Source: Platerodrilus igneus
Taxonomy: Eukaryota > Arthropoda > Insecta > Coleoptera > Lycidae
Assembly: GCA_036346225.1 (NCBI GenBank)
Contig: JARFIW010001480.1
Coordinates: forward strand, 11,501,001 to 11,565,000
Length of the DNA: 64,000 nucleotides
Direction: 5' to 3'
Each line of letters begins with the position of its first letter. Within the stretch, counting starts at the first letter, position 1. Both the position numbers and the translations under genes were made by a program. The notes beneath the pieces are model-generated. The model searched no databases and was not told where the DNA came from. It saw only the letters and a program-made list of their open reading frames with translations. Shown one piece after another: positions 3,513 to 26,041 of the stretch.

Positions 3513-3515
<3 letters not shown>

Positions 3516-4266
3516 CTGTGATAAGGGGTTGTTTAAGGGTGTACCTTATAGTAAAGGTCGTTTAGAAATAAAAAATCATCATAGGAAGCAGAAAAACTGC
3601 ATTTATTTAGTAAAAGAATTGAGAAATGGAGATAGTTTGTAAATAGTAAGCAGTCAACACCCTGTATATAAATATAAATAGTTTTAAGCGACGCAAATAG
3701 ACACAGGAAGACGCACAGTTAGTATAGAAACAAGGAAGACATGCATTAAGTAAATAGTAAATATTTAATACCCTGTACATAGAGTTTTAGTTAATTTAGG
3801 CAATGTAAAGAATGATATTTTTCAGTGGAAGCACGCGTATTTTATATGTAAACATACTAAAGTGTAATTAAACACGCATTCAAAAGAGTTCCAAACAATT
3901 AGGTTAATACGGAGATAAGAAATAGAGCTTCGAGAAGCATAGGGCAAATGCGAACAAGTAGTTAAGAACTTTAATAAGAAAGGAGATTAAAGATTGCGTA
4001 AATAACATGCATATATGAAAATTAAAAGTCGAATTGCATCAGTTGTTTATGGAAAAGCGATTAGATTCATCAAAACACCGCATGTTTGATAACGAAGCAC
4101 CTGCGAGCAGGCCACAATTATTTGAAAACATAGAAAATTACATCAGAAACTACTTTAAATGCAAAGATTTGATTGGTTAAAATGAGCGACGAGTTTGTAG
4201 ACCATACCCACTGATAAGACAGCCCAACGTCGGAGAACGATAATTCCAATTCTTGTTTATACATAG

Positions 4267-4268
<2 letters not shown>
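3513..4268. other. Non-coding, no gene recognised
   Basis: No protein-like frame was found. The stretch lies between two TA-type microsatellites and carries no match to the inverted-arm element that follows. Confidence 0.5.
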
Positions 4269-4308
<40 letters not shown>

Positions 4309-4340
4309 CAACCATTTAATAAAATATATATATATATATA
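4269..4340. repeat. (AT)n tract at the left edge of the inverted-arm element
   Basis: Two pure AT dinucleotide runs (4269-4304 and 4324-4340) are split by about 19 bp of unique sequence. The inverted arm begins at the last repeat unit. A matching AT tract closes the right arm at 10450-10476. Confidence 0.9.
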
Positions 4341-6225
4341 TTGTTGTGGAATTGTAGGTTAAATAGGCGTAGACAATAAAATTTTATCAACTATGTATAT
4401 AGAAAATAGGAACAATTTATTTACGCGCCAAACTAATCAGTTTAAATAGTGAAGACGGACAGGTATTAACATAGTTTATATTTCTAAATTAGAATGTTAA
4501 AATTGCATAAAAGGGAGGAATCTTTAGAGTACATAAAACTCAAGGATACGCATAATTAAATTATAATAATTTTAAATCAAGCGCATGGAAGCAGAAACGG
4601 AGTTTTCAAGTATAGAAAATCAATAATTTACACGCATATTTCCATTTACGTAAACAAAAACGGTTCGTTTACAAATCCTAAGAAGGGGATAAACTCGGAA
4701 TTGTTATTTTAAACAACAAGGGGCTTTAAATAAACACCTGTTATTTAAATGTCAGATTCATAGAACTGGATTATACGTTGAGATAGAATTTCTATGAAAT
4801 TGTTTGCAACGGTCGGTTTGACAAACTAACAATAACAAGTGCATTGAAGACTAAGTGAAATGAACGATTTATAATGTAATACGTATAAAAAAGCGTTGGT
4901 TACAAGTCACGTCAAGACCAACAACAATATCGATTTTCTGTAGCTTGAAAGGGGTTTCTAAAAGTGACAATAAATATGGGTGAAACGAAGAAAGATAGCT
5001 GAGATTTGGAGCGCTATAACGGGAGAAAACTATATCATTGGTCTAAGGCGAGCAGTTTTGAGAAGCGCGCGTCCGTTGAGGTATTAAACGAATTTCAGTG
5101 TAACATTATGATGATCTCGGAATTTTTTAGACGCTACGTTCCAAAATTTGAAGTGATTTTAAAATAAACTTTTCGATGAAGAGAGGTTTCTTGAGGGGTT
5201 GGGAAAAGCGTATAGATACTGTGAGAAAGATATTAAAGCTCTCTTTCTCTTAGATCTTAGATCGCGCTTAGATCTCCAACGTAATTGATAGTATATGCTC
5301 TTACGTGTATTAATTATTGTTTAATCGCTAAAGTAGCATACAACATCCTGTTTTAGAGTATGTAAAGCTGTAGTAACGTACCGGAAAAGTATTAAAAGTC
5401 ATTTGCACGAGTGGGTGCTAAGGTCTAGACAAAAGGTGCCATTACTACAAGACTCAATTGAATGATGGGATGGTACTTGGGTAAGCGAAGCTTAAAGCTT
5501 AACTAGTATGCATGAAGTGTAGTAGTATGGAATGTTAAGTTTGGACAAGACAAATATCTGGGTAGAAGATCAAAGGTGGTTGCAGAGATTTGAATAGTGG
5601 GGATCAGTTGGATCCGGGCATAATCGAAGTATATGGACACAACGGCGAGGGTTTCTGGTACCCATCTTCAGAGGTGACGAGGGACGAAGCCTATTCCAGG
5701 TAAAAAAAATTAATTTCCGGCTTTTTGCTTAAACATTTGTGCTGATATATTTGCGTTAAGTGTTTTGATTTATTGGGGGTGTATTTATTACCATAAAAAC
5801 TCATTTAAAGTGGTATATGTACAGGACAATTAATATTGATTATTTAAAAATGTTTATTGATGATATAAAATGTTGTTGTAAAGAGTAAACGGGTCTTTAG
5901 ATTTAATTTTTAATAAAAATACAATGTTTAAAAGCATTTAGAGGAACTGGGTTATAATGAGCTCAAAATAGACCGGAATAAAATCAATCTAGGGTTGCAT
6001 GACGGGCCCATCAACTCATCTAAAATAAAATTGTTGAAGTATATTAAAATTATAAAGTTTTAAAGGATCTAATGATTGAGATGGTAACAGTTTACAAACT
6101 GTATGTATCAAGGTGTAAATATTTTCTTAATAATGGAAACTTGTTAATATGTGTAAATAAAAAGGTTGTATGTTTTGTTGCATTATTTGAGTGGTAATTT
6201 CATGTGATTGTGTTTGTGTGAAAGT
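4341..6225 (+). repeat. Left inverted arm (about 1.9 kb)
   Basis: Anchors that reappear reverse-complemented in the right arm include ttgttgtgg at the outer edge, ctcaaggatacgcataatta, aatatcgattttctgta, an AGATCT-rich stretch near 5265, gaggtgacgagggac near 5675, ctagggttgcatg near 5990 and caaggtgtaaatatttt near 6110. The match fades near 6225, some 320 bp before gag. No tRNA primer-binding site was recognised just inside the arm. Confidence 0.85.
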
Positions 6226-6542
6226 AAGGTACTTAGGATGGTAGGTATTCAAGACGAAGCCGATTGCTGAGCTAGTCAGGGTGAGCAAAAATACAGAGGC
6301 GTTCAAAAGGTAGTGTAAGAAACATTTAATTTAATTTTTTCAAAAAATTTAATGTTTGCCCAATTCGTGGGGTGAGAAATTTTAAAAGGTTCCACGGCAC
6401 TTTTATGACGACCGGAACGTGAGGGCTCGATTCCCGAATAAAATTCGAAAATTTTATTCCAGGAAACTGGCGAGCTGAGAGAGAGTGTGTGTAGTGTAGA
6501 TTTGTAAATATTTTTGAGTGTGTGAGGAAGTGATTTGAACGT

Positions 6543-7861
6543 ATGCAAAGAAAGGAGTGGCTAAAAAGCCAAGGAGTTGAAATTGGAAGTGACGATAGTG
6601 CATTATTTGAAAAAACAGGAAAAATGGAGGAAGCTGGAGGTAGTAGAGATCAATCAAAAACAGAATCGGGGGACCAAGGAAATGAATTAATAATGAGAAT
6701 GTTAGAGGAAATGCGAATAGGTAGAGAAGAATCAAACCGGAAATTTGATCAGATGAATGCAGAATCAAATCGGAAGTTTGAGGAGATTAGGGAAATGAGT
6801 GCTGAATCGAACGGGAAATTTGATCAAATGAATGAAACATTAACGGGAGTTAGGAAGACATTAAGTGAAAAAATATATAAGACAACCAAAGAATTTTCTG
6901 AGTTTAAAAATAGGTTAACAGTAAAAATGAGGGAAGTAGAAAATAGGGTTGATAAAAATGAACGTAATATAAGAGGTTTGAGTTAGGAAATGGGACAATT
7001 AAGGACGGAGGTTAGAATTTTTTGTGAAGATGAGATCAATGTAAAAATGACTGAAGTAACAGATTCATGTAGAGATCAGCTAGGAGGGGTTGAGAGAGAA
7101 GTAAGCGGAATTAAACAGAATGTATCGACTTTGATGGGGCATGGTCCCAGATTTGTAACAGGGAATATGTCACTGGACCAGCAGATGAAATTTTATGGGG
7201 ATAGTAGGGTGAACCTTCAAATTTTTATAAATAAAACTAGAGGTTTTTGAAACACTACTGGAGCGACCACCGACAAAACCTAGTACGTGACGATTTAATA
7301 ACTGGTAAATATAATGGGGAATTTGCAGGAAATAGGGAGCAGTATGCTATACGAAAGTATAGCATAGCCAAACAACTAAATCCACCATTAACAGACCGAC
7401 AGATTATAAAATACCTTTCACGACATTTTGAGGTTGAGGTTCGGCAACACGTAGCGTTGCAGAGCATAGTAGATAAGGAAATGTTTTTAGAGTACCTGCA
7501 AAGGTATGATGACGTAAGTAGTGGACGACCTCGTGATACAAGGGAACGACAAGTGAATACGTTTAGGTTTGACAATAGAACGGATAGTTATCTAAGACGG
7601 GGGACAAATTTTTATTTTAACAACCGACAGAACTGGGAACCACAACGGACATTCTTTAGGAGTAATAGTGTAGGTAGAGGACCCGCACCACGACCTGGGG
7701 TACCCAGATAAAACAGTTCACCGGACATGAGAGGGACACAGACATCGACAACGAACAGGGAAAATGACAGTACTAACAGAGTAGAGACGCCAAGGACATT
7801 TGCAGAAGTAGTGGCAAGACCAGGACCGAGTAGGGAGAACAGACCTCAACAGGATTTTTAG
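6543..7861 (+). pseudogene. Retroelement gag (capsid precursor), broken
   Basis: Gag would form the particle shell of an LTR-type retroelement. The N-terminal part (6543-6986) is a charged coiled coil with two near-repeats of ESNRKFDQMN. The second part (7247-7711) contains the capsid-like stretch with KQLNPPLTDRQIIKYL and VEVRQHVALQ, typical of Ty3/Gypsy-group gag. Three lesions are seen. There is an in-frame TAG at 6984. A one-base loss in the T run at 7243-7247 moves the frame. There is an in-frame TAA at 7709, after which the same frame stays open to TAG at 7859-7861. No CCHC zinc knuckle was found; the C-terminus is basic and rich in Arg, Gly and Pro instead. The start at 6543 gives the longest open N-terminus, but the true start is uncertain. 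Confidence 0.75.
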
Positions 7862-8532
7862 ACGAGGACAAACCACTAAACATCACTGTGTACAAATACA
7901 AACATCCAAAAGAATTTTTAATAATTGAGGAAGGAGTTGAGTCTAAAATAAAAGAAAGTTTTTGTTTGCCAATAGTTGATGTTAAAATTTTTGAGAAAAA
8001 TTTAGAAGCGTTGTTGGATTCAGGAGCTGAGGTGAGTTTAGTATCGGAGGAATTCGTTAATAAAATTAAAGAAAAGGTGTGTGACAGAATTATGCCAATA
8101 AAAAGAAGTCACCTGGTAGCGCCGAATAAAAAGCGATTTGCTATAGTGAATAGTGTAGTTATTTTAAAAGTAGAGTTGGGTTCAGTAAGCTGTGAGCAGG
8201 AATTTATAATTGTACCTGGATTAAAGTTTAAAGGAATATTAGGGGTCGATTGTATGATGAAGTTAGAAGTAGTAATAGATAATATAGAGAGGAAGGTTGT
8301 TAGGATTGGGGATAGGATATTGCCCTGGAAGGCAAGTTATGAGGTCACAGAGGATGACATGGGGTTATGTATTAATGTTATGAAGGTAGATGAGGAACAA
8401 GTGAAAGAGATCGACGCAGTTAAATATATTGAGGAAAAGTTAGAAAAGGTACAATTGGTAGTGAATAAAGAGTCTGAATTAATAGCAGTAGAAGCGAACG
8501 CAGCATCATGTTACACACACACAGTCAAATGA
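7855..8532 (+). pseudogene. Retroelement aspartic protease, pol truncated after it
   Basis: The frame opens in the -1 phase relative to gag at a T run (ATTTTTAG) and carries the retropepsin active-site motif LLDSGAEVSLVS and the later ILGVDCM motif. The enzyme cleaves Gag-Pol polyproteins as a homodimer. After about 225 residues the frame stops just inside the right inverted arm, so the reverse transcriptase, RNase H and integrase that normally follow are missing. The gag stop and protease frame overlap at the T run, consistent with a -1 frameshift arrangement as in many LTR elements, though ordinary decay cannot be excluded. The protease core itself has no internal stop. Confidence 0.8.
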
Positions 8533-10442
8533 AATTACCAAAATAATACAATAACCATACAACCTTTTATTTACACATATTAACAGATAAAATATTTACA
8601 CCTTGGTACAGAGAGTTTGTTACAACAGTTACCAGCTCAATCGTTAAATACTTTAAGGTTTTTGGTTTTAATATATTTTAACAAATTCTATTCAATACGA
8701 GTAGACGGGCCCCACATGCAACCCTAGTTTGACTTTATTCTGGTCTATTTTGAGCTTATTATAACCCAGTTTCTTTAAATGCTTTCTAAACCTTGCATTT
8801 TATTGAAAACAATTTTGAAGACCCGTTTAGTCCTTAAAACAACAATTTATAGCATGAATAAGCCTTTATATATCATCAATAAACCCTTTTTTAATAATCA
8901 AATTCATTGTCTTGCACATATACCTCTTTAAACACGTTTTATGGTAATAAATATGCCCCCAATAAATCAACACATAAACCCTAAAAATATCAACCCAAAT
9001 GTTTATACAAAAAGAGGAATTTATGTTTCGTTACCTGGAGTCGCCTTCGTTCCTCGTCACCGCTGCAGATGATTACCAGAAACCTTCGTCGTTGTGTCCA
9101 TCTACTACAATGATGCCTGGATCCACTGATCTCCCACCATCCAAGTCTCGGCCACCAAAACTGCTTATCTCCCCAGATATTAGCTTTGTCTCAAACGTAA
9201 CATTCCATAACAAATATATTTCATGCATACAAGTTACACTTTAGGCTTTGTTTACCCAAATATCATTCCTTCATTTAATAGATTCGTTGTAGTAACGTCA
9301 CTTTTATCTAAACAAAAGCAGCAACTCGTGCAATATCACTTTTACAACCTTTTGCGGTACGTTGCTACAGCTTTCATAATTTCTAAACAGGATGTTATAT
9401 GCAACTTTGCTGACTAAACACAATAATCAATACCCGCAAGAGCATTTACTATTATTACGTTGCAGATCTAAGCACGGTCTAAGATCTAAATGGAAAGAGA
9501 GCTTTAATATTTTTCTCAGTGTATTTATATCATTTTCAAAACACCCCGGTGAAACCTATTTCACTTGAAAAGCTTATTTTTCAATTTACTTCTACTAATT
9601 TCGAACGTAACGAACTCTCACTTCTCAAAAATCCCCCTTTCGTCGTGCTGTTACATAGAATTTTGTTTACTATCTCAACGGATACGCTTTTCTTGAAAAC
9701 TGCTAGCCATTAACCAATGATAGAATTTTCCCTCGTCACAGCGCTCCACCTATCTGCTATCTATCTCCGTTCTACGCATGTTTGTTGTCTCCTTTAGAAC
9801 CCCTCTTAAGTTACAGAAAATCGATATTGTGGTCGTCCTTCACATTTACCCGTGTATTTCGTACGTGACTTGTACCCAACGCTTTCTTTTCCTGCTTCTC
9901 TGTCTGTCTTACATTATCGATCGTTTATTCCACTCGGTCTTCAAGGCACTTGTTATTTTAGCAGCTTATACAAATCGACCGTTGCAAACAAACTTCTATA
10001 GAATTTTGTGCTAACGTTCGTTTAAAATTCCATAAACCTGACATTTAACAACAGGTGTTTCTTGAAACAACCGACCGTTTAAAATAACAATTCTTGGTTT
10101 CATACCTACTTAGTATTTGTATAAACGAAAAATGGCTTTTAAAATGGAAATATTTGTGTTTAAAATTATTTGTTTTCTATGCATGCAAGCTCCCTTTTTC
10201 TCCCATGTGTTTGATTTAAAAATATTACAATTACTTATGCGTATCCTTGAGTTTTTATGTACTCTAAAGCTTTCTTCCCTTATGCAATTTTAACATTCCA
10301 ATTTAAATATAGAAGAATACCTTAATAACCGTCCGTTTTCACTATATAAATTAACTAATTTGGCGCGTAAATAATTCGCTCTTGTTTCTATATACACAGT
10401 TGCTAAAATTTTATTGTCTACAGCTATTTAACCTCTAATTCC

Positions 10443-10449
<7 letters not shown>
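8510..10449 (-). repeat. Right inverted arm (about 1.9 kb)
   Basis: This is the reverse complement of the left arm, read from 10449 inward. The inner edge overlaps the last residues of the protease frame. ORFs in this arm (8999-9244, 9223-9417, 9519-9713, 9778-10014) have no recognisable domain and are judged spurious. Confidence 0.85.

Positions 10450-10476
<27 letters not shown>
10450..10476. repeat. (AT)n tract at the right edge of the inverted-arm element
   Basis: A pure AT dinucleotide run that starts immediately after the last base of the right arm. Confidence 0.9.
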
Positions 10477-11161
10477 CTATCTTCAAATGTAACTTTCTGG
10501 GTAGTGGTCATACTTTAATTAAAATAATACATTATAATATTTTTGTTTACGCGTTTCGGTCTACAAGACCATTATTAAAACTTTATTAAAGAAAATATTC
10601 TTCAATAGTACCTACAAATTTTTACTTATAAACTTTTTTCAGATAATTAATCCTTACCTCTAATACAATTATTTTCTAAATTGGTATAGATAAATTTAAT
10701 TTTAACATTAATATGTAATTCACACATTTTCTGTCATTAAATATAATTGTATGCATACACTTTAAAAGCTAAATTAAAACTGTCGATAATAACATTAATA
10801 CATTATTGATAACAACCTTTTATCTAATTTACATTATTGTACTATCAATTATCTATTCAAACTATTTTATTTCTTGAATCTACAGGGTTAAACAATATAA
10901 ATATACACTTGCAATTACTTTTAATTATTCTAACATTACTGATTATTTTGTTATTCCAATTTTTAGTTTACTACTATGTATTTGTTATGTATAATATTAT
11001 TAAATACTAAAGGATTCTTACAGGCAGGAAAAAGTAAGGTAATCGTTCATAATAAAGTAGAGTGTCCGAGTACTCCAGAGTAGTTCTATAACTTTTATTT
11101 TATTCTCAATGTATGAACTTCCGTTTCTTTTTTAAACCATAGTCACAGCTAGGCTGCACAC
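10477..11161. other. Non-coding, no gene recognised
   Basis: Very AT-rich. The string cgtttcggtctacaag near 10552 resembles a motif I have seen next to Penelope-like elements, but no PLE coding sequence is adjacent and the link is weak. Confidence 0.4.
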
Positions 11162-11456
11162 TCTATAAATATTTTCATCTATATATAGGATTTGCTAAAA
11201 CGGAAGCAAACCCAAAGTTACATTTTTTTAAATGAAACACCCTATACTTGGTATCAAATCCTGAGAGTCCTTTTGATAATTATGAAACTGATACAGAGGT
11301 ACCAGGGATCGATAATGGACGGTTTACTATTTATGAATCATTCTATGTAAAAAAATCATCTCTATTTTGAAAACTTGCATACGTATCCGTAGCGAATTTG
11401 AACGGTCAATTCCTTCACGACAAGATTTTCAATATGCTAAAGTAACATTACCCATA

Positions 11457-12512
11457 GCATCATCATCATCATCATTGGGTCTTCAGTCCTGAAACTGGTT
11501 AGACGCGTACCATCATTGTTTCCTATTCTGAACTAACCTACAGATTTCCCCGAAATTTGCACAGTCTGCATCTATCACTATCTGATATAGGTCTACATGC
11601 ACCTCTATTTTCCTATGTCTGCTTGTCATATATCCCATACTATTCCCCAAAAATGCCTTAGAACGTATTCTGCCCTTCTATTTCTCATATTTTTCCCCAA
11701 AGATATCCTTGTTCCCTTACTGTTTCTAGAACCTATTTGTTATTACCTTTGACTGTCCATCCTCATACATCTGAAGCACGGCATTTCAAAGGCTGCTACT
11801 GTTCTTCTGCCTGCTTTTCAGGCTGCTCGTATTTCGTAGGCATACTGTCTGTGCTGTGCTCCACACATATGCTTTCAACAACTTTTTGTTCTATGTTTGT
11901 TGTCTTTCATCATAGGCGCCGTTCTTTTTTGTTAGATGCAGTTCGGTCCCCTTCTATTGTTTTACAATTATATATCCTATTTCTCCGACATTCAGTGGTT
12001 GCGAAGGGGGGTAAGCAGCCTGTGCCTGCCAAGTTCCCTCAGCACTTGAACATTTACTGATTTAATATTTTTTCCAATATATCTTTTCGCACAGTCAACG
12101 TTAGTTGCAGATATTTCACAACAAACAACTAGTTGTTTATAATAATCATCAGATTTATCTGCGCTTATTTTTTCGTCATTGGGTTTCCCGTCTCAAAACT
12201 GGTTGGACACGTACCTGCACTTATTTATTTTCTAAACTAACCTACATAGTTCCATGAAATTCTCACACAGCAATACAGCTCGGTTCCCCTTATATTGTTT
12301 TCTAATATTATGCCATATTTCACTGAGATTTATTGAAGGGGGTTAAGTAACCTGTGGCTGCCAAGATCCCCCAAAACTTAAACATTTGCCGAAACAATAG
12401 TTTTCCAGTAAATGCTTTCACGCAATTACCATCATTCGGGAATATTGCTCCTCCAATGCTTGTAGTTGCTTATATTAAATATCATGTTTAAGTGCAGCTA
12501 TTTTCTTCGTCA
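11457..12512 (-). repeat. Modular 3' region of the RTE-like LINE
   Basis: Downstream of pol the element repeats its own 3' parts. A 3'-end module (CCAACCAGT, AATGACGAAAA) is followed by a spacer of about 250 bp, another 3'-end module, another spacer, a decayed copy of the pol C-terminal segment (encoding remnants of the CGAQH and AFEMWC region) and the final 3' end with the (ATG)n tail. The same order is seen in the plus-strand copy and at 44151-44852 and 49848-51148, so it belongs to the family and is not local damage. Confidence 0.65.
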
Positions 12513-12944
12513 TTAATTTATCCATCTTGGGACTGGTTGGATGCGTACCTCCATTGATTTCTCTTCCTTAGCTAGCCTACACATTTCCATGAAACTCCTA
12601 CAGCCTACATCTTTCACTATCTGTGTGCAGTAGTCTAACCTAGGTCTACCTCTTCTTCTCTTTTTTCCTATCTCTGCTTCTAGTATATTCCGCACTATTC
12701 CTTCATGCCGTAGTATGTGGCCTATCATCCTATCTCTCATATTTTTTACCGTTTTCCACATATTTCTTTCTTCCCCTACCATTTTTAGTACCTCTTCGTT
12801 CTTAACTTTGTCTGCCCATGATATCTTCATCATACGTCTGTAGCACCACATTTCAAAGGCTTCTACCTTTTTCTTGTCCGCTTCTCCCACTGTCCAGGCT
12901 TCACAGCCATACAGTGCTGTGCTCCACACATATGTTTTGAGCAA
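12513..12944 (-). pseudogene. LINE pol C-terminal domain, unit 1
   Basis: The 143-residue frame contains TALYGCEAWTVGEADK, AFEMWCYRRMMKISWADK and GKKRRRGRPRLDYCTQIV. These are typical of the C-terminus of RTE-like pol proteins. It ends at a stop that is also the start of the 3' region. A decayed second version of this same segment occurs further downstream (11740-11930). Confidence 0.8.
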
Positions 12945-13137
12945 TCTTTTTCTTGTTTCTATGTTTGTGGTCTTTGAGCACAGTAGTTGCTTTTTCTTGT
13001 TAAATGTAGCACGACCTTGTGCTAAATCTTTGTTTTATATCTTTTGTGCTTTTCCCATCTTGCGTTATTTGGCTTCCTAGGTAGCAGAAATCCTTAACCT
13101 CTTGTAAGTTCGTGTTACATACTTGTATTCTTGTTTT

Positions 13138-13638
13138 TCATTTATTTTCCCCACCTTTGCATACTAGAACTTTAGTTTTAGTTTTGTTAATTTTCATACC
13201 GTATCTCTCTGTTAGAACCATTTCCATTTCATTGAGAGCAGCTTCTAACCCTTCCTTGCTAGACGCTAATACCGCTATATCATCTGCAAATCTAAGCATA
13301 TCAATTTTTTGTCCCTCCATAGTAATTCCAAATGTCTTCCTGCATTTGACAGTATTCATTGCCTCCTCAATGTACAAGTTAAAAATTAGTGGGGATAGGG
13401 AACATCCCTGTCTTACCGCTTTCCTGATGTTTACTTCTCTACGTTCCTGCTCTAATTCTATTACTCCTGTTTGCTCTTTGTATAAGCTATGTACTATCCG
13501 TCTATCCCTATAACTCATTTCAATCTTTTTGAGTATTTCGAACATTTTTTTCCATTTTACATTGTCAAATGCTTTTTCCAGATCTACAAACCCTATATAC
13601 ACGCTTTCTCTTTTTTCTATTGTTTTCTCCATTATCAC
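13138..13638 (-). pseudogene. LINE reverse transcriptase palm, unit 1
   Basis: The frame reads through the RT core: GFVDLEKAFDNV with the first catalytic Asp, VRQGCSLSPLIFNLYIEEA, and MLRFADDIAVLASS with the two catalytic Asp of the FADD box. No key residue is lost. It is the largest intact RT piece of the family in the window; in unit 2 the same region is split by a one-base difference at AAAATT versus AAATT. Confidence 0.85.
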
Positions 13639-13674
13639 CCTCAGAGCTAAGATAGCCTCCCGTGTGCCCCTGTT

Positions 13675-14544
13675 TCACCTAAACCCAAATTGGTGTTCTC
13701 CTAGTATTTCTTCAGCCCGTTTTTCCATTCGTCTTTGTACAATTCTAGTTAATATTTTTGTTACGTGTGCTGTCAAGCTTATTGTTCGAAAATTTTCACA
13801 TCTATCTGCGCCTTTCTTTTTTGGTATAGTTACTATGATGTTATGTTTGAAATCTTTGGGTATCTCGCCTGTCTCATACATATAGCTTACAAGTTGGAAG
13901 AGACGTTCTGTTACTGCTTGACCAGCGGCTTTTAGAGTCTCCGCTTGCACCTTATCTGTACCCGGCGCCTTACCATTTTTCAGACCCTTTAATGCTATTT
14001 CAAATTCATCTCTAAGTATAGGATATCCCAAGTCATCATTTTTAATGTCTGATTTCTTTTCTAGTGCAGTTAGTTCTTCTCCTGCATATAAATTCCCTAA
14101 ATATTCTTGCCATCTACCCACTTTCTCTACATTTTCTATAATGACATTTCCTCCCGTGTCCCTTATATTTTTGCTTTACGGTTCTATATCCCTAAAATTG
14201 ATTCTAATTAGTTTGTATGCTTCAACTGTCTTTCCTACTTCCATCTTGATTTGTACCTCTTTGCACTTTTCATCAATCCATTGTTCTTTAGCTTTCCTGC
14301 ATTTTCGAATAATTTCCCATTTTATGGCTTTGTATCTCTGTTTTCTTGTTTCGTCTGATTTATTTTTGTATTTTCGTCTTTCTTTTATTAAATTCAGGAT
14401 ATTCTTTGTTATCCATGGTTTCTTATTTACTTTTTGTGTATACCCCAGAATATCTCTGACCGCCATGTCGAGGCTGGATTTAATGTTATTCCATTCTGTT
14501 TCTACTTCCTTAGTATCAGTTATTTTCCCGATATCTTTGAGCAA
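13675..14544 (-). pseudogene. LINE linker and first RT motifs, unit 1
   Basis: The first piece (14544-14176) is a basic linker with GYTQKVNKKPWITKNI. The second (14121-13675) contains LKNGKAPGTDKVQAETLK, the VTIPKKKGADRCENFRTISL block and GEHQFGFR, which are RT fingers motifs 0 to 2. A stop separates the pieces at about 14170. It continues into the palm at 13638 after a frame break. Confidence 0.75.
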
Positions 14545-14545
14545 T

Positions 14546-15487
14546 TCATTTGATCATTTTTCGAATCTTTCTTGAATATCTTTCTTTTAGTTTCTGTAGG
14601 TCTAAGTGCCTTTTTCCGTTTCTTTTTTTCAAATTTTTAAATTTAAGTGCGGCCTTCATAATTACGATGTTGTGGTCAGTGTCTATATCTGCTTGTGGGC
14701 AGCTTCTACAGTCTTTTACTTGATTTCTAAACCGTTGTCTATCAAGAATGTAATCTATTTGATATCTTCCTATATCTCCTGGCATCTTCCACGTATACCG
14801 TCTTCTAGCATGATGTTGAAATAATGTGTTTGTAATGATTAAATTGTTCTTGTCGCAAAATTCTACCAGCCTATTTCCTCTGTCGTTTCTAGTGCCTAAA
14901 CCAAATAAACCCACTATCGCTCCTTCCCTACCCTCACCTACCACTGCATTAAAATCCCCTGTAATTATTAAATTTTCATGTCCTTTTACGTGTCTTAATA
15001 TGTCTTCGATATCTTTGTAGATTGCTTCTACCTCTTCGTCACTGTAGCTAGAGGTGGGCATGTATACTTGTATTATTACTGTGTTTACCGGATTCTAATC
15101 TAACCATGAGTACTCTTTCATTCTTTTGTAAGTAATTTTATACACAGTATCCTATCTTTTCCGCATAAGTATCCCCACACCCAAATTTCCTTCCTCGGCT
15201 CCTGTATGAATTACCCTGAAGTCTCCACTCCAAAAATCCCCCGCCTCTGGCCACCGAACTTCGCTGATCCCTACTATGTCTGATGATAACCTATTCATTT
15301 CGATTTTTAGGTTCTCTAGCTTACCCACTTGCTTCATAGTTCTAACATTCCACGCTCCGACTCGCAAAATGTTCCCGACTCTTATTCTTAACCTTCCGAT
15401 CGCATCCTCCGAAGTAGTCCCGTCCCGGAGATCCGAATGAGGGACTATTTTAACTCTGCAATCTTTTACCCCAGAGAATGCCATCAT
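14546..15487 (-). pseudogene. LINE apurinic-type endonuclease domain, unit 1
   Basis: This domain nicks target DNA to prime reverse transcription. The first piece (15487-15152) carries VGAWNVRTMKQVGKLENLK and ISEVRWP. The second piece (15061-14546) carries ITGDFNAVVGEG, RRYTWKMPGD, YQIDYIL and the catalytic-type DTDHN motif. Between the pieces the frame is lost through a base change in a T run (unit 2 has one more T here and stays open for five more codons) and a stop. All main endonuclease motifs are present. The first ATG at 15487 follows a region that is conserved in the family, so translation may start further upstream. Confidence 0.8.
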
Positions 15488-15904
15488 TTTATTATAGTTT
15501 AGGTACGCTGTGTACTTGGGAGGTAATGTGGTGGTTTCCCGTTGCCATCCACATCGCGGTAGTGTGTCTTAGACTGCCATACCGACCCCTATGGTCTCTG
15601 CCAATCTAAGTACCGAAAGAGCCGCTGCCCTCTTTCGAGGACCTGTCTTAGTCTGGTTCCTCACTAACGACCCTACTACTTTGGTTGGACCTGTAGTTTG
15701 GCTCTTTAGCTCATTAGAACACGCAAGCCATTTCACCTGTTCTAGTAATCTAGAACTTCGGCAAGGTGCAGGTCTATTCGAAATGGATACCCATAGCATA
15801 ATAAACGAAAATAATTTTTTCAAATAGGACTATACATATTGGATGTTGCTATTGAATAGCAATTTTAAAAAGCTTTCCAATGATATAAAACTTTGTATAG
15901 GTTA

Positions 15905-18534
15905 CATGGATAACAAAGAATATCCTGAATTTAATACAGGAAAAACGAAAATACAAAAATAGATCAGATGAAGCGGGAAAACAGAGGTACAAAGCCATTA
16001 AATGGGAAATTATTCACAAATGCAGGAGAGCTAAAGAACAATGGATTGATAGAAAGTGCAAAAAGGTACAAACTAAGATGGAAATAGGAAAGAGACGAAG
16101 CATACAAACTAATTAGAATGAATTTTTCGGATATAAAACCGTATAGCAATAATATAAGGGACGCGGGAAGAAACGTCATTATGGAAAATGTAGAGAACGT
16201 GACTAGATGGGTAGAATATATATGGAATTTATATGCAGGAGAAGAACTAACAACATTAGAACAAGAATTAGACATTGTAAAGGATGGCTTCGAATATCCT
16301 ACATTTTAGATATGAGTTTGAATTAGCCTTAAAGGGTCTGAAAAATAGTAAGGCATCGGGTACAGATAAGGTGCATGCAGAAACTCTAAAAACCTCTGGA
16401 CAAACAGTAACAGACCATGGGGTCCAACTTGTAAGCTACCTGTATAAGACAGGTGAGATACTCAAGGATTTCAAACGTATCATCATAGTAAGTATACCAA
16501 AAAAAGAGGCGCGAATAGATGTGAGAAGTTTTGAACAAAAAGTTTGACAGCACATGTGTCAACAATATTAACTAGAATTGTACAAAGACGAATGGAAAAA
16601 CGAGCTGAATAAATACTAGGAGAAGATCAATTTGGGTTGAGACGAAACAGGAGAACACGGGATGCTATTTTAGCTCTGAGGGTGATAATGAAAAAACAAT
16701 AGAAAAATGGAAAAGCGTGTATATAGGATTTGTAGATCTGGAAAAAGCATTCGACAATGCAAAATGGAAAAACTGATCGAAATACTAAAAAGATTGTAAT
16801 GAATTTTAGAGATAGACGGATAGTACATAGCTTATGCAAGGAGCAAACAGCGCTAATACAATTAAAGCAGAAACGTAGAGAAGTAAATATTAGGAAAGGG
16901 GTGAAACAGGGATGTGCCCTATCCGATTAATTTTTAACTTGTACATCGAAGAGGCAACGAATACTGTCAAATGCCAGAAGACATTTGAAATTATTATGCA
17001 GAGACAAACCATTGATATGCTTAAATTTGCAGATGATATAGCGCTATTAGCATCTAGCAAGGAGGAGTTAAAAGCTGCTTTTAATAAAATGGAAACAGTT
17101 CTAACAGAGAGATACGATATGAAAATTAACGAAAATAAAACTAAAGTACTAGTATGCAAAACAGAGGAAAAGTAATTATAAACTAGAATACAAATAGGTA
17201 ACGAGAATTTGACAGAGGTTAAGGATTACTGCTACTTAGGAAGCCAAATAACGCAAGATGGGAAGAGCACAAAAGACATAAAACAAAGATTAACAGAAGG
17301 TCGTGTTACATTTAACAAGAAAAACAAATTACTGTGTTCAAAGACAACAAACATAGAAACAAGGAAGAGATGGCTTAAAACATACGTCTGTAGGACATTA
17401 TTGCACTGTTGTGAAACCTGGATAGTAGGAAAAGCGGACAGGAATAAGATAGAAGCCTTTGAAATATGGTGCTACAGACGAATGATGAAGATATCATGGA
17501 CACTCAAAATTGAGAACAAACAGTTACTAGAATGGTAGTAGAAGAAAGAAGTATGTGGAAAACAGTAAGAAATAGGAGAGATAAGATGATGCACCACCTA
17601 CTAAGGCGAAATATATTAGAAGCAGAGATAGGAATAAAGAAAAGTAAAGGTAGACCTAGGTTAGACTATTGCACTCAGATAGTGAAAGATGTAGGATGTA
17701 GTAATTTCAAGGAAATGAGCAGGCTAGATCAGAATAAAAATCAATGAAGGTACGCGTCCAATCAATTTGAAGATGGAAAACCTAATGACGAAAAAATAAC
17801 TGTACTTAAACCTTATGATTATTATAAGCAACTACAGGTATTGGTTTCGCAATCTACTAATGTTAATTGTGCAAAAGGATTTACTGGAAAACTATTAATT
17901 CGGCAAATGTTTAAGTGTTGGGTATCTTTGGTAACCAGAGGCTGCTTAATCTCCTTCACATACTACTGAATCATGGTGAAATAGGATGTATAATTAGGTA
18001 ACAACAGAAGGGGAACCGAGTTGAATCTAGACTGTGGAAATTTCATGGAACGGTGTAGGCTAGTTTGGAATAGAAATAAGTGAAAGTACGCATCCAACCA
18101 GTTTCAAGACTGAAAACCTAATGACGAAAAAAATAATTGCACTTAAATCTGATGATTATTATAAACAACAACAGGTGTTGGTTATGAAATATTTTCAACT
18201 AATGTTGATTGTGCGAAAGGATACGTTTGGAAACTATTAATTTGGCAAATGTTTTAGTGTTGGGGGGATCTTGATAGTCACAGGCTACTTAACCCCCTTT
18301 AAACTTCGGGGAAATAGGTTATATATTTGTAAACAATAGAAGGGAACCAAACTGCATTTAACAAGTAAGAGCAACAACTATGTTCGAAGACAACAAACAG
18401 AAATAAGGAGAAAATTGTTGAAAGCATGTGTGCGGAGCACAGCATTGTACGTCAATGAAATAGGGGCAGTAGGAAAAGCAGACAAAAACGGTAGATGCAT
18501 TTGGAATGTTGTGCTTCAAATGTATGAGAATGAC
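15905..18534 (+). mobile_element. RTE-like LINE, 5'-truncated plus-strand copy, unit 1
   Basis: This copy faces the minus-strand element head to head. It starts inside the pol linker (its first bases match 14345-14420 reverse-complemented), which is the usual result of incomplete reverse transcription. It ends abruptly at tatgagaatgac (18523-18534), where the 3' end fragment of another LINE is joined. Together the two copies form an imperfect inverted repeat with arms of roughly 2.6-3 kb. Confidence 0.8.
15964..17747 (+). pseudogene. Decayed LINE pol, plus-strand copy, unit 1
   Basis: Scattered frames carry the family motifs: LKNSKASGTDKVHAETLK (16284-16547), MLKFADDIALLASS (16912-17175), YCYLGSQITQDGKS with AFEIWCYRRMMKISW (17209-17538) and KGRPRLDYCTQIVKDVG (17532-17747). 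Many stops and frameshifts break it, and it is clearly more divergent from the minus-strand copy than unit 1 is from unit 2. So the two opposed copies are separate, older insertions and not a recent inversion. Confidence 0.8.
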
Positions 18535-18676
18535 ATTATAATTTGAATAAGGGCCGCTATACTTGCGGCCACGTCCCCAATGCTCCACCCAGAGATACTA
18601 CATTGGGTTTAAATGCGAAAAATAATCGTGCTTCTAATTAATTCTAACTTCATGATTAATCCACTCTAAATAAAAT
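18535..18676 (-). mobile_element. 3'-end fragment of the RNase H LINE, cut by the duplication joint
   Basis: The 142 bp match 26042-26183 exactly by eye. They are the extreme 3' end of the LINE at 26042-29298 and are cut off where unit 2 starts. This shows that the LINE inserted before the tandem duplication. Confidence 0.85.
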
Positions 18677-18971
18677 TCTATAAATATTTTCATCTATATA
18701 TAGGATTTGCTAAAACGGAAGCAAACCCAAAGTTACATTTTTTTAAATGAAACACCCTATACTTGGTATCAAATCCTGAGAGTCCTTTTGATAATTATGA
18801 AACTGATACAGAGGTACCAGGGATCGATAATGGACGGTTTACTATTTATGAATCATTCTATGTAAAAAAATCATCTCTATTTTGAAAACTTGCATACGTA
18901 TCCGTAGCGAATTTGAACGGTCAATTCCTTCACGACAAGATTTTCAATATGCTAAAGTAACATTACCCATA

Positions 18972-21900
18972 GCATCATCATCATCATCATTGGGTCTTCA
19001 GTCCTGAAACTGGTTAGACGCGTACCATCATTGTTTCCTATTCTGAACTAACCTACAGATTTCCCCGAAATTTGCACAGTCTGCATCTATCACTATCTGA
19101 TATAGGTCTACATGCACCTCTATTTTCCTATGTCTGCTTGTCATATATCCCATACTATTCCAAAATGCCTTAGAACGTATTCTGCCCTTCTATTTCTCAT
19201 ATTTTTCCCCAAAGATATCCTTGTTCCTTACTGTTTCTAGAACCTATTTGTTATTACCTTTGACTGTCCATCCTCATACATCTGAAGCACGGCATTTCAA
19301 AGGCTGCTACTGTTCTTCTGCCTGCTTTTCAGGCTGCTCGTATTTCGTAGGCATACTGTCTGTGCTGTGCTCCACACATATGCTTTCAACAACTTTTTGT
19401 TCTATGTTTGTTGTCTTTCATCATAGGCGCCGTTCTTTTTTGTTAGATGCAATTCGGCCCCCTTCTATTGTTTTACAATTATATAGCCTATTTCTCCGAC
19501 ATTCAGTGGTTGCGAAGGGGGGTAAGCAGCCTGTGCCTGCCAAGTTCCCTCAGCACTTGAACATTTACTGATTTAATATTTTTTCCAATATATCTTTTCG
19601 CACAGTCAACGTTAGTTGCAGATATTTCACAACAAACAACTAGTTGTTTATAATAATCATCAGATTTATCTGCGCTTATTTTTCGTCATTGGGTTTCCGT
19701 CTCAAAACTGGTTGGACACGTACCTGCACTTATTTATTTTCTAAACTAACCTCCATAGTACCCTGAAATTCTCACACAGCAATACGGCTCGGTTCCCCTT
19801 ATATTGTTTTCTAATATTATGCCATATTTCACTGAGATTTATTGAAGGGGGTTAAGTAACCTGTGGCTGCCAAGATCCCCAAAACTTAAACATTTGCCGA
19901 AACAATAGTTTTCCAGTAAATGCTTTCACGCAATTACCATCATTCGGGAATATTGCTCCTCCAATGCTTGTAGTTGCTTATATTAAATATCATGTTTAAG
20001 TGCAGCTATTTTCTTCGTCATTAATTTATCCATCTTGGGACTGGTTGGATGCGTACCTCCATTGATTTCTCTTCCTTAGCTAGCCTACACATTTCCATGA
20101 AACTCCTACAGCCTACATCTTTCACTATCTGTGTGCAGTAGTCTAACCTAGGTCTACCTCTTCTTCTCTTTTTTCCTATCTCTGCTTCTAGTATATTCCG
20201 CACTATTCCTTCATGCCGTAGTATGTGGCCTATCATCCTATCTCTCATATTTTTTACCGTTTTCCACATATTTCTTTCTTCCCCTACCATTTTTAGTACC
20301 TCTTCGTTCTTAACTTTGTCTGCCCATGATATCTTCATCATACGTCTGTAGCACCACATTTCAAAGGCTTCTACCTTTTTCTTGTCCGCTTCTCCCACTG
20401 TCCAGGCTTCACAGCCATACAGTGCTGTGCTCCACACATATGTTTTGAGCAATCTTTTTCTTGTTTCTATGTTTGTGGTCTTTGAGCACAGTAGTTGCTT
20501 TTTCTTGTTAAATGTAGCACGACCTTGTGCTAAATCTTTGTTTTATATCTTTTGTGCTTTTCCCATCTTGCGTTATTTGGCTTCCTAGGTAGCAGAAATC
20601 CTTAACCTCTTGTAAGTTCGTGTTACATACTTGTATTCTTGTTTTTCATTTATTTTCCCCACCTTTGCATACTAGAACTTTAGTTTTAGTTTTGTTAATT
20701 TTCATACCGTATCTCTGTTAGAACCATTTCCATTTCATTGAGAGCAGCTTCTAACCCTTCCTTGCTAGACGCTAATACCGCTATATCATCTGCAAATCTA
20801 AGCATATCAATTTTTTGTCCCTCCATAGTAATTCCAAATGTCTTCCTGCATTTGACAGTATTCATTGCCTCCTCAATGTACAAGTTAAAATTAGTGGGGA
20901 TAGGGAACATCCCTGTCTTACCGCTTTCCTGATGTTTACTTCTCTACGTTCCTGCTCTAATTCTATTACTCCTGTTTGCTCTTTGTATAAGCTATGTACT
21001 ATCCGTCTATCCCTATAACTCATTTCAATCTTTTTGAGTATTTCGAACATTTTTTTCCATTTTACATTGTCAAATGCTTTTTCCAGATCTACAAACCCTA
21101 TATACACGCTTTCTCTTTTTTCTATTGTTTTCTCCATTATCACCCTCAGAGCTAAGATAGCCTCCCGTGTGCCCCTGTTTCACCTAAACCCAAATTGGTG
21201 TTCTCCTAGTATTTCTTCAGCCCGTTTTTCCATTCGTCTTTGTACAATTCTAGTTAATATTTTTGTTACGTGTGCTGTCAAGCTTATTGTTCGAAAATTT
21301 TCACATCTATCTGCGCCTTTCTTTTTTGGTATAGTTACTATGATGTTATGTTTGAAATCTTTGGGTATCTCGCCTGTCTCATACATATAGCTTACAAGTT
21401 GGAAGAGACGTTCTGTTACTGCTTGACCAGCGGCTTTAGAGTCTCCGCTTGCACCTTATCTGTACCCGGCGCCTTACCATTTTTCAGACCCTTTAATGCT
21501 ATTTCAAATTCATCTCTAAGTATAGGATATCCCAAGTCATCATTTTTAATGTCTGATTTCTTTTCTAGTGCAGTTAGTTCTTCTCCTGCATATAAATTCC
21601 CTAAATATTCTTGCCATCTACCCACTTTCTCTACATTTTCTATAATGACATTTCCTCCCGTGTCCCTTATATTTTTGCTTTACGGTTCTATATCCCTAAA
21701 ATTGATTCTAATTAGTTTGTATGCTTCAACTGTCTTTCCTACTTCCATCTTGATTTGTACCTCTTTGCACTTTTCATCAATCCATTGTTCTTTAGCTTTC
21801 CTGCATTTTCGAATAATTTCCCATTTTATGGCTTTGTATCTCTGTTTTCTTGTTTCGTCTGATTTATTTTTGTATTTTCGTCTTTCTTTTATTAAATTCA

Positions 21901-23330
21901 GGATATTCTTTGTTATCCATGGTTTCTTATTTACTTTTTGTGTATACCCCAGAATATCTCTGACCGCCATGTCGAGGCTGGATTTAATGTTATTCCATTC
22001 TGTTTCTACTTCCTTAGTATCAGTTATTTTCCCGATATCTTTGAGCAATTCATTTGATCATTTTTCGAATCTTTCTTGAATATCTTTCTCTTTTAGTTTC
22101 TGTAGGTCTAAGTGCCTTTTTCCGTTTCTTTTTTTCAAATTTTTAAATTTAAGTGCGGCCTTCATAATTACGATGTTGTGGTCAGTGTCTATATCTGCTT
22201 GTGGGCAGCTTCTACAGTCTTTTACTTGATTTCTAAACCGTTGTCTATCAAGAATGTAATCTATTTGATATCTTCCTATATCTCCTGGCATCTTCCACGT
22301 ATACCGTCTTCTAGCATGATGTTGAAATAATGTGTTTGTAATGATTAAATTGTTCTTGTCGCAAAATTCTACCAGCCTATTTCCTCTGTCGTTTCTAGTG
22401 CCTAAACCAAATAAACCCACTATCGCTCCTTCCCTACCCTCACCTACCACTGCATTAAAATCCCCTGTAATTATTAAATTTTCATGTCCTTTTACGTGTC
22501 TTAATATGTCTTCGATATCTTTGTAGATTGCTTCTACCTCTTCGTCACTGTAGCTAGAGGTGGGCATGTATACTTGTATTATTACTGTGTTTACCGGATT
22601 CTAATCTAACCATGAGTACTCTTTCATTCTTTTGTAAGTAATTTTATACACAGTATCCTATCTTTTTCCGCATAAGTATCCCCACACCCAAATTTCCTTC
22701 CTCGGCTCCTGTATGAATTACCCTGAAGTCTCCACTCCAAAAATCCCCCGCCTCTGGCCACCGAACTTCGCTGATCCCTACTATGTCTGATGATAACCTA
22801 TTCATTTCGATTTTTAGGTTCTCTAGCTTACCCACTTGCTTCATAGTTCTAACATTCCACGCTCCGACTCGCAAAATGTTCCCGACTCTTATTCTTAACC
22901 TTCCGATCGCATCCTCCGAAGTAGTCCCGTCCCGGAGATCCGAATGAGGGACTATTTTAACTCTGCAATCTTTTACCCCAGAGAATGCCATCATTTTATT
23001 ATAGTTTAGGTACGCTGTGTACTTGGGAGGTAATGTGGTGGTTTCCCGTTGCCATCCACATCGCGGTAGTGTGTCTTAGACTGCCATACCGACCCCTATG
23101 GTCTCTGCCAATCTAAGTACCGAAAGAGCCGCTGCCCTCTTTCGAGGACCTGTCTTAGTCTGGTTCCTCACTAACGACCCTACTACTTTGGTTGGACCTG
23201 TAGTTTGGCTCTTTAGCTCATTAGAACACGCAAGCCATTTCACCTGTTCTAGTAATCTAGAACTTCGGCAAGGTGCAGGTCTATTCGAAATGGATACCCA
23301 TAGCATAATAAACGAAAAATAATTTTTTTC
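18972..23330 (-). mobile_element. RTE-like LINE, near full length, unit 2
   Basis: It is the counterpart of 11457-15823, with the same order of domains and the same (ATG)n tail at 18972-18990. The dispersal of frame breaks differs slightly from unit 1. The endonuclease piece is longer here, while the RT palm is split. Confidence 0.85.
20021..22994 (-). pseudogene. Broken LINE pol, unit 2
   Basis: The pieces, 5' to 3', are endonuclease 22994-22644 and 22567-22058, linker 22048-21680, RT fingers 21625-21416 and 21386-21180, RT palm 21143-20862 and 20910-20695, and C-terminus 20452-20021. Motifs are the same as in unit 1. The palm is split at 20886, where one A is missing. A 269-residue frame on the other strand (21270-22079) is antisense to this gene and has no domain of its own. 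Confidence 0.8.
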
Positions 23331-23411
23331 AAATAGGACTATACATATTGGATGTTGCTATTGAATAGCAATTTTAAAAAGCTTTCCAATGATATAAAAC
23401 TTTGTATAGGT

Positions 23412-26041
23412 TACATGGATAACAAAGAATATCCTGAATTTAATACAGGAAAAACGAAAATACAAAAATAGATCAGATGAAGCGGGAAAACAGAGGTACA
23501 AAGCCATTAAATGGGAAATTATTCACAAATGCAGGAGAGCTAAAGAACAATGGATTGATAGAAAGTGCAAAAAGGTACAAACTAAGATGGAAATAGGAAA
23601 GAGACGAAGCATACAAACTAATTAGAATGAATTTTTCGGATATAAAACCGTATAGCAATAATATAAGGGACGCGGGAAGAAACGTCATTATGGAAAATGT
23701 AGAGAACGTGACTAGATGGGTAGAATATATATGGAATTTATATGCAGGAGAAGAACTAACAACATTAGAACAAGAATTAGACATTGTAAAGGATGGCTTG
23801 AATATCCTACATTTTAGATATGAGTTTGAATTAGCCTTAAAGGGTCTGAAAAATAGTAAGGCATCGGGTACAGATAAGGTGCATGCAGAAACTCTAAAAA
23901 CCTCTGGACAAACAGTAACAGACCATGGGGTCCAACTTGTAAGCTACCTGTATAAGACAGGTGAGATACTCAAGGATTTCAAACGTATCATCATAGTAAG
24001 TATACCAAAAAAAGAGGCGCGAATAGATGTGAGAAGTTTTGAACAAAAAGTTTGACAGCACATGTGTCAACAATATTAACTAGAATTGTACAAAGACGAA
24101 TGGAAAAACGAGCTGAATAAATACTAGGAGAAGATCAATTTGGGTTGAGACGAAACAGGAGAACACGGGATGCTATTTTAGCTCTGAGGGTGATAATGAA
24201 AAAACAATAGAAAAATGGAAAAGCGTGTATATAGGATTTGTAGATCTGGAAAAAGCATTCGACAATGCAAAATGGAAAAACTGATCGAAATACTAAAAAG
24301 ATTGTAATGAATTTTAGAGATAGACGGATAGTACATAGCTTATGCAAGGAGCAAACAGCGCTAATACAATTAAAGCAGAAACGTAGAGAAGTAAATATTA
24401 GGAAAGGGGTGAAACAGGGATGCCCTATCCGATTAATTTTAACTTGTACATCGAAGAGGCAACGAATACTGTCAAATGCCAGAAGACATTTGAAATTATT
24501 ATGCAGAGACAAACCATTGATATGCTTAAATTTGCAGATGATATAGCGCTATTAGCATCTAGCAAGGAGGAGTTAAAAGCTGCTTTTAATAAAATGGAAA
24601 CAGTTCTAACAGAGAGATACGATATGAAAATTAACGAAAATAAAACTAAAGTACTAGTATGCAAAACAGAGGAAAAGTAATTATAAACTAGAATACAAAT
24701 AGGTAACGAGAATTTGACAGAGGTTAAGGATTACTGCTACTTAGGAAGCCAAATAACGCAAGATGGGAAGAGCACAAAAGACATAAAACAAAGATTAACA
24801 GAAGGTCGTGTTACATTTAACAAGAAAAACAAATTACTGTGTTCAAAGACAACAAACATAGAAACAAGGAAGAGATGGCTTAAAACATACGTCTGTAGGA
24901 CATTATTGCACTGTTGTGAAACCTGGATAGTAGGAAAAGCGGACAGGAATAAGATAGAAGCCTTTGAAATATGGTGCTACAGACGAATGATGAAGATATC
25001 ATGGACACTCAAAATTGAGAACAAACAGTTACTAGAATGGTAGTAGAAGAAAGAAGTATGTGGAAAACAGTAAGAAATAGGAGAGATAAGATGATGCACC
25101 ACCTACTAAGGCGAAATATATTAGAAGCAGAGATAGGAATAAAGAAAAGTAAAGGTAGACCTAGGTTAGACTATTGCACTCAGATAGTGAAAGATGTAGG
25201 ATGTAGTAATTTCAAGGAAATGCGCAGGCTAGATCAGAATAAAAATCAATGAAGGTACGCGTCCAATCAATTTGAAGATGGAAAACCTAATGACGAAAAA
25301 AATAACTGTACTTAAACCTTATGATTATTATAAGCAACTACAGGTATTGGTTTCGCAATCTACTAATGTTAATTGTGCAAAAGGATTTACTGGAAAACTA
25401 TTAATTCGGCAAATGTTTAAGTGTTGGGTATCTTTGGTAACCAGAGGCTGCTTAATCTCCTTCACATACTACTGAATCATGGTGAAATAGGATGTATAAT
25501 TAGGTAACAACAGAAGGGGAACCGAGTTGAATCTAGACTGTGGAAATTTCATGGAACGGTGTAGGCTAGTTTGGAATAGAAATAAGTGAAAGTACGCATC
25601 CAACCAGTTTCAAGACTGAAAACCTAATGACGAAAAAAATAATTGCACTTAAATCTGATGATTATTATAAACAACAACAGGTGTTGGTTATGAAATATTT
25701 TCAACTAATGTTGATTGTGCGAAAGGATACGTTTGGAAACTATTAATTTGGCAAATGTTTTAGTGTTGGGGGGATCTTGATAGTCACAGGCTACTTAACC
25801 CCCTTTAAACTTCGGGGAAATAGGTTATATATTTGTAAACAATAGAAGGGGAACCAAACTGCATTTAACAAGTAAGAGCAACAACTATGTTCGAAGACAA
25901 CAAACAGAAATAAGGAGAAAATTGTTGAAAGCATGTGTGCGGAGCACAGCATTGTACGTCAATGAAATAGGGGCAGTAGGAAAAGCAGACAAAAACGGTA
26001 GATGCATTTGGAATGTTGTGCTTCAAATGTATGAGAATGAC
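23412..26041 (+). mobile_element. RTE-like LINE, plus-strand copy, unit 2 (left part)
   Basis: This part ends with tatgagaatgac at 26030-26041 and resumes at 29299 with the same 12 bases after a 3257-bp insertion. Pol remnants lie at 23627-24055, 24420-24680, 24714-25043 and 25037-25252 with the same motifs as unit 1. The modular 3' region follows from about 25253. Confidence 0.85.
26030..26041. repeat. Target-site duplication, left copy
   Basis: The 12 bp tatgagaatgac are repeated at 29299-29310 and flank the RNase H LINE. Confidence 0.85.

What the first reader, a model, noticed from the sequence alone, without database searches (positions are those of the whole stretch)
4341..10449. Gag-protease element with 1.9-kb inverted arms
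Two arms are reverse complements of each other and enclose a retroviral-type gag and aspartic protease, with no RT or integrase. Known LTR elements have direct terminal repeats, and known inverted-end retroelements (DIRS) lack a protease. This may be a non-autonomous element class with inverted ends, or an LTR element whose 3' LTR was flipped while pol was lost.
Basis: partly seen in the sequence, partly recalled or inferred. Interest (0 to 1): 0.75.

Follow-up and report, generated by a model that had tools for sequence, protein, structure and literature searches.

The report
Rearranged gag-protease LTR retrotransposon copy
The block is a damaged copy of an abundant retrotransposon that normally has its long end repeats in the same direction; here the far end was lost and replaced by a backward end repeat of a different subfamily, so it is a rearranged relic and not a new kind of mobile element.

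Summary
Two ~2-kb arms, 4342-6399 and 10448-8513, are reverse complements (76% over 1998 columns). Their outer ends abut (TA)n, and they enclose a retroviral-type protease ORF (Pfam) and gag-like ORFs; no RT or integrase was seen in the 2.1 kb between them. The inverted layout is not the element's own structure. The left arm is a 5' LTR (TG...CA, then a PBS-like site and gag). In the same 2.71-Gb genome, of 40 scored protease copies I looked at the 3' side of 35. An LTR in direct orientation follows in 29, and in 26 of these the tail/LTR boundary lies about 0.9-2 kb after the protease query, leaving no room for pol. Two have an inverted LTR (this one and C1039), and 4 are undetermined. The junction at 8513 is crossed by 0 of 39 other scored places. 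The arms fall in different LTR subfamilies (support 100/100). Best reading: a non-autonomous LTR-gag-pro-LTR family, this copy truncated and fused at a short CA-rich microhomology to an inverted LTR of another copy.

The parts
4324..4341 (.). (TA)n target tract abutting the 5' LTR
   Evidence: sequence; 13 of 13 sampled LTR copies with an intact 5' end (of 20 fetched) are preceded by an AT repeat, short in L028 and L039
4342..6399 (+). 5' LTR (left arm), subfamily A, TGTTGTGGAA...TTCCACGGCA, 2058 bp
   Evidence: 40 of 40 scored places cross from LTR end into the gag leader, 37 of them from query base 20 or earlier
6406..6425 (+). primer-binding-site-like sequence 6 bp after the LTR (compare TGGCGACCCGAACG in L044); primer tRNA not identified
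   Evidence: inference by position
6543..7248 (+). gag-like ORF, N-terminal part (6543-6986, then same frame to 7248 after a stop)
   Evidence: no Pfam match above cut-off; label by position
7247..7711 (+). gag-like ORF, C-terminal part, in another frame (broken gene)
   Evidence: no Pfam match above cut-off, no PDB match
7834..8532 (+). retroviral-type aspartic protease ORF; 3' end truncated by the junction (in L043 the frame goes on about 90 codons further)
8512..8523 (.). junction protease / inverted LTR, with TACACACA shared by both sides (CA-repeat-like)
8513..10448 (-). inverted LTR of subfamily B (right arm), complete 5' end, lacks about 180 bp of its 3' end by comparison with the left arm
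10449..10476 (.). (TA)n tract abutting the 5' end of the inverted LTR

Best explanation
The locus is a chimeric relic. The family inserts into (TA)n tracts, which explains why both outer ends abut TA repeats and imitate a terminal-inverted-repeat element. Shown: the family layout, the one-off junction, the two subfamilies. Inferred: the order of events, and that the family moved with RT and integrase supplied in trans by an autonomous relative while its own gag and protease built or matured the particle.
For: Direct 3' LTR after the tail and polypurine tract: 40 of 40 scored places span that boundary, one being the query's own copy. 13 of the 40 protease copies pair with such a place 630-785 bp downstream (12) or 1748 bp (1) on the same strand. 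Of 20 further protease copies sampled, 13 show the tail-to-LTR boundary and 3 more an LTR piece, all direct. Window junction: 0 of 39 other scored places cross it. The right arm groups with L041/L042 (100/100, inner branch 0.12), the left arm does not. No place is shared between the 40 best left-arm and the 40 best right-arm hits. By contrast the two direct LTRs of the C858 copy are sisters (99/95) at 91.8% over 1276 columns. TACACACA is shared at the junction. Solo LTRs lie in (TA)n. The interior goes with both subfamilies: of the 13 sampled 3' LTR starts, 10 are nearer the right arm and 3 nearer the left.
Against: A second inverted layout exists at C1039, and there the inverted LTR is unusually close to its same-locus 5' LTR (second best of the 39 other scored hits, 95%), so inverted fusions are not unique in kind. 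Only the best 40 candidates of thousands are scored per search, and 5 of the 40 protease copies were not looked at. Eleven of 24 inner forks of the LTR tree are drawn open (weak), and it holds only three B-type rows. The microhomology lies in a CA repeat and may be chance. No helper element was identified. TA repeats hide any target-site duplication.
Confidence: 0.9

Rival explanations
1. The element's own 3' LTR was inverted by a local rearrangement (or gene conversion) after insertion.
For: Simple one-locus event; the C1039 locus looks like this (L041 inverted arm vs L042 5' LTR 94.6% over 1709 columns, sisters 100/99).
Against: In the window the arms are in different subfamilies at 76%, whereas a direct LTR pair of one copy (C858) is 91.8%.
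Confidence: 0.06
2. A retroelement class with genuine inverted ends that mobilises gag-pro.
For: Both outer ends are intact LTR 5' ends in (TA)n, and a second inverted locus exists.
Against: The two junctions differ and neither is crossed by another scored place; the window arms are not a pair; the LTR after the protease is direct in 29 of 35 examined copies.
Confidence: 0.01
3. A DNA transposon with 1.9-kb TIRs targeting TA that captured gag-pro.
For: Outer ends in (TA)n; TA-microsatellite-targeting DNA transposons are known (MuTAnT, title and abstract start in the listing).
Against: Left-arm copies occur alone in (TA)n with TG...CA ends; PBS-like site and polypurine tract flank the internal region in relatives; no transposase ORF between the arms.
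Confidence: 0.01
4. Assembly artefact joining two LTR copies.
For: Repeats are abundant and the junction is seen once.
Against: The contig is 15.8 Mb long and 3900-11000 reads without N; arms at 76% are not easily confused by an assembler (inference).
Confidence: 0.02

Closest known systems
TR-GAG elements (plants; PMC8704663, passages read)
   Same: LTR element whose coding part is gag only, able to move without its own pol
   Different: TR-GAG is described there in plants with a single gag ORF; here gag-like ORFs plus protease, in a genome whose organism was not identified
CM-gag of Culex pipiens (seen only as a reference title in PMC3286476)
   Same: repeated transposable-like element with a gag gene only
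   Different: paper not read; no comparison of sequence made
Ty3/gypsy LTR retrotransposons with ATAT/TATA target motifs (Drosophila, PMC3276498, passages read)
   Same: AT-alternating target; TG...CA LTRs, PBS and polypurine tract are general LTR-element features (recalled)
   Different: no pol in the family as sampled, so the superfamily cannot be assigned by RT or integrase
DIRS-1 (PMC5633606, passages read)
   Same: inverted LTRs around a gag-like ORF, as in this one locus
   Different: DIRS-1 has RT, RNase H, methyltransferase and tyrosine recombinase and an internal complementary region; none found here, and the family's LTRs are mostly direct

Membership tests
LTR retrotransposon | direct long terminal repeats with TG...CA ends | tested here: met
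   met for the family; not met at this rearranged locus
LTR retrotransposon | PBS after 5' LTR and polypurine tract before 3' LTR | tested here: met
   PBS-like TG(A/G/T)CGACC after the LTR (tRNA not identified); AATAGGGGGATTA or close variants before the 3' LTR
LTR retrotransposon | short target-site duplication | tested here: inconclusive
   sampled intact ends lie in (TA)n, so a duplication cannot be delimited
Autonomous Ty3/gypsy element | RT, RNase H and integrase | tested here: not met
   12 of 13 paired copies have the tail/3' LTR query 630-785 bp after the protease query, 1 has 1748 bp
TR-GAG-like non-autonomous LTR element | LTRs with gag coding capacity and no pol | tested here: inconclusive
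   no pol; protease shown; gag identity rests on position only
DIRS | inverted terminal repeats as the family layout | tested here: not met
   of 35 examined 29 direct, 2 inverted, 4 undetermined; neither inverted junction is crossed by another scored place
DIRS | internal complementary region and tyrosine recombinase | tested here: not met
   arm outer 200 bases against 6400-8512: only matches of 10-15 bases at E<=1; no other ORF of 90 aa or more in sense between the arms

The most novel reading that the evidence does not exclude
Inverted-LTR copies of this gag-pro family arise repeatedly (2 of 35 examined) by one process, for example self-integration of the cDNA or strand-switching during reverse transcription, so that such palindromic copies are a regular by-product with fold-back transcripts that could feed small-RNA silencing.
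Probability: 0.06. Interest if true: 0.45.

Novelty: new member of a known kind. Interest (0 to 1): 0.2.

Why it matters
The inverted layout itself is ordinary decay. What remains of some interest is an abundant LTR family (4637 and 3310 first-look candidates; these are not copy counts) that carries a protease and gag-like ORFs but, in the copies sampled, no pol, and sits in (TA)n tracts. That is useful for repeat annotation of this genome, and a case where capsid and protease seem to have been kept without the polymerase.

Tried and rejected
Protein look-ups of the protease ORF and of the 154-aa gag-like ORF gave no hit at E<=0.001. Single-sequence folding of the gag-like ORF was too poor for a fold search. 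Looking for a DIRS-type internal complementary region gave only matches of 10-15 bases for the arm outer ends; the LTR 3' end gave a 21-base hit at E=0.004, not followed. Paper searches saw part of their lists: inverted LTRs (12 of 5,465 listed), TA-microsatellite targets (10 of 79), non-autonomous gag/protease elements (15 of 47), TR-GAG (12 of 12), CM-gag (1 of 1). No listed title described an inverted-end gag-pro element, which is not proof of absence. PMC6911290 was looked at in passages and not used. A loose pattern count of 3' ends in TA tracts was not used, because it also catches reverse 5' ends and other repeats.

Full report
Observation. The two arms are real: 4324-6219 against the reverse of 8513-10466, 76% over 1998 columns, far beyond shuffled letters (score 1567 against at most 33 in 20 shuffles). 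The outer ends are exactly 4342 (TGTTGTGGAA) and 10448 (its complement), each abutting a (TA)n tract. Between them are gag-like ORFs with a broken frame and an aspartic protease ORF (Pfam Asp_protease_2 1.9e-6, RVP 5.3e-6). The gag label rests on position only: there was no Pfam match above cut-off, and for the 7247-7711 ORF no PDB match and no usable fold.

The arm is an LTR. The window's genome is held (2.71 Gb, 1723 contigs). The left arm's inner 433 bases have 39 further scored matches at 89-93%. I fetched 10 kb around 20 of these 39 places. Compared with the window element (hits of 100 columns or more), none has an inverted partner arm or the gag-protease interior; L030, L037 and L039 hold a second, diverged or partial piece in the same orientation as the first. 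The 5' end is intact in 13 of the 20; it begins TG and is preceded by an AT repeat in 13 of 13, short in L028 and L039 (read). At least 11 of the 20 end ..CA and run into a TA repeat, several after one or two extra ~60-base modules (read). The complete ones are therefore solo LTRs sitting in (TA)n; the others are truncated. In the window the left arm ends at 6399 with TTCCACGGCA, mirroring its start, and a PBS-like site follows six bases on. In a query from LTR into gag leader (boundary at query base 170), 40 of 40 scored places cross the boundary, 37 of them from base 20 or earlier; the other three start at 114 or 130.

The family layout is LTR-gag-pro-LTR, direct, without pol. The copy at C858 has, after the protease, about 0.9 kb of further sequence ending AATAGGGGGATTA and then the LTR start in direct orientation. 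A query across that boundary matched 40 of 40 scored places across it, one being C858 itself. Of the 40 scored protease copies, 13 pair with such a boundary on the same strand, with gaps between queries of 630-785 bp (12) and 1748 bp (1). From 25 copies not yet placed I sampled 20 with 500-base pieces: 13 show tail then direct LTR, 3 show an LTR piece in direct orientation without the boundary, so not in the expected register (L049, L063, L064), 2 show tail only (L048, L053; in L053 no LTR follows where expected) and 2 show nothing recognisable (L045, L062). L050 has, beyond its direct LTR start, a 64-73-base inverted piece of the same start. Five copies (C1222, C280, C1032, C954, C932) were not examined. 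With the window and C1039, that makes 29 direct, 2 inverted and 4 undetermined of 35. An RT-RNase H-integrase region (about 3 kb, general knowledge) does not fit in these gaps, so lack of pol is a family trait as far as sampled. Of the 13 sampled 3' LTR starts, 10 are nearer the window's right arm and 3 nearer its left arm, so the interior is shared by both LTR subfamilies.

The window locus is a fusion. A 200-base query over the protease/right-arm junction finds no other crossing place; the other 39 scored matches begin at query base 99-102, 94-98% identical, in the arm only. In a maximum-likelihood tree of 27 LTR segments the right arm groups with both LTRs of C1039 (100/100, branch 0.12) and the left arm lies elsewhere among the solo LTRs. 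A 90-column second piece of L040 was left out of the tree; 11 of 24 inner forks are drawn open (weak), but not the ones used here. LTRs of one insertion start identical (established knowledge), and the direct pair of C858 is indeed a sister pair (99/95). The lists of the 40 best left-arm and right-arm places share no place; apart from the window only C855 has one of each within 12 kb, on the same strand. The joint lies in TACACACA, present on both the protease side (L043) and the LTR side (L041), as in microhomology-mediated joining (inference; the stretch is CA-repeat-like). The right arm lacks the last ~180 bases of the LTR but has its 5' end in a TA tract.

Evidence that cuts the other way. 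C1039 also has an inverted LTR after the protease, with a different junction that no other scored place crosses (0 of 39). There the inverted LTR is close to the 5' LTR of the same locus (95%, second best of the 39 other scored hits; the best is C1371 at 96%, the rest are at most 93%), so a local inversion of its own LTR is likely there. Inverted copies thus arise more than once, but with different breakpoints.

Comparison. The mechanism is that of non-autonomous LTR elements that keep gag: TR-GAG in plants can transpose without their own pol (PMC8704663, passages), and a gag-only repeated element of Culex is cited in PMC3286476 (reference line). AT-alternating targets fit Ty3/gypsy clades of Drosophila (PMC3276498, passages). 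DIRS-1 has inverted LTRs but RT and a tyrosine recombinase (PMC5633606, passages); neither was found here. Verdict: observation confirmed, element-class reading rejected, non-autonomous gag-pro family supported, interest low.

Noticed in passing
window 11162-18680 and 18677-26187: Head-to-tail duplication of a 7.5-kb block at 99.6% identity holding LINE-like RT ORFs (label recalled, from reading); either a recent tandem duplication or an assembly repeat.
   Followed up: no
window 3514-4266: A ~750-bp unit TGCTGTGATAAGG...CATAGCA with (TA)n on both sides, close upstream of the 5' LTR. Among 24 fetched loci searched, L038 holds 705 of its bases at 80% next to its LTR copy, and L026 and L033 hold about 159 bases at 71-74%. 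Possibly a second TA-targeting repeat.
   Followed up: partly
C1397:4786163-4793241, C1633:154836-166425, C1102:634323-640265 (genome places): Copies of the gag-pro element spaced about 5.1-5.7 kb apart, consistent with tandem LTR-internal-LTR-internal arrays.
   Followed up: no
L022, L028, L030, L031 (LTR 3' ends): LTR 3' ends carry one or two extra ~60-bp modules (starting like TTTTATGACGGCCCAACGCTGGGG) that end in a repeat of the terminal CACGGCA or a variant and hold a PBS-like string.
   Followed up: no
L050 234-459: On the strand read, a direct 3' LTR start followed by an inverted 64-73-bp copy of the same LTR start, a small fold-back.
   Followed up: no
window 36867-37910: Long open frame that reads like a Tc1/mariner-type DDE transposase (recalled from reading, no family search run).
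   Followed up: no
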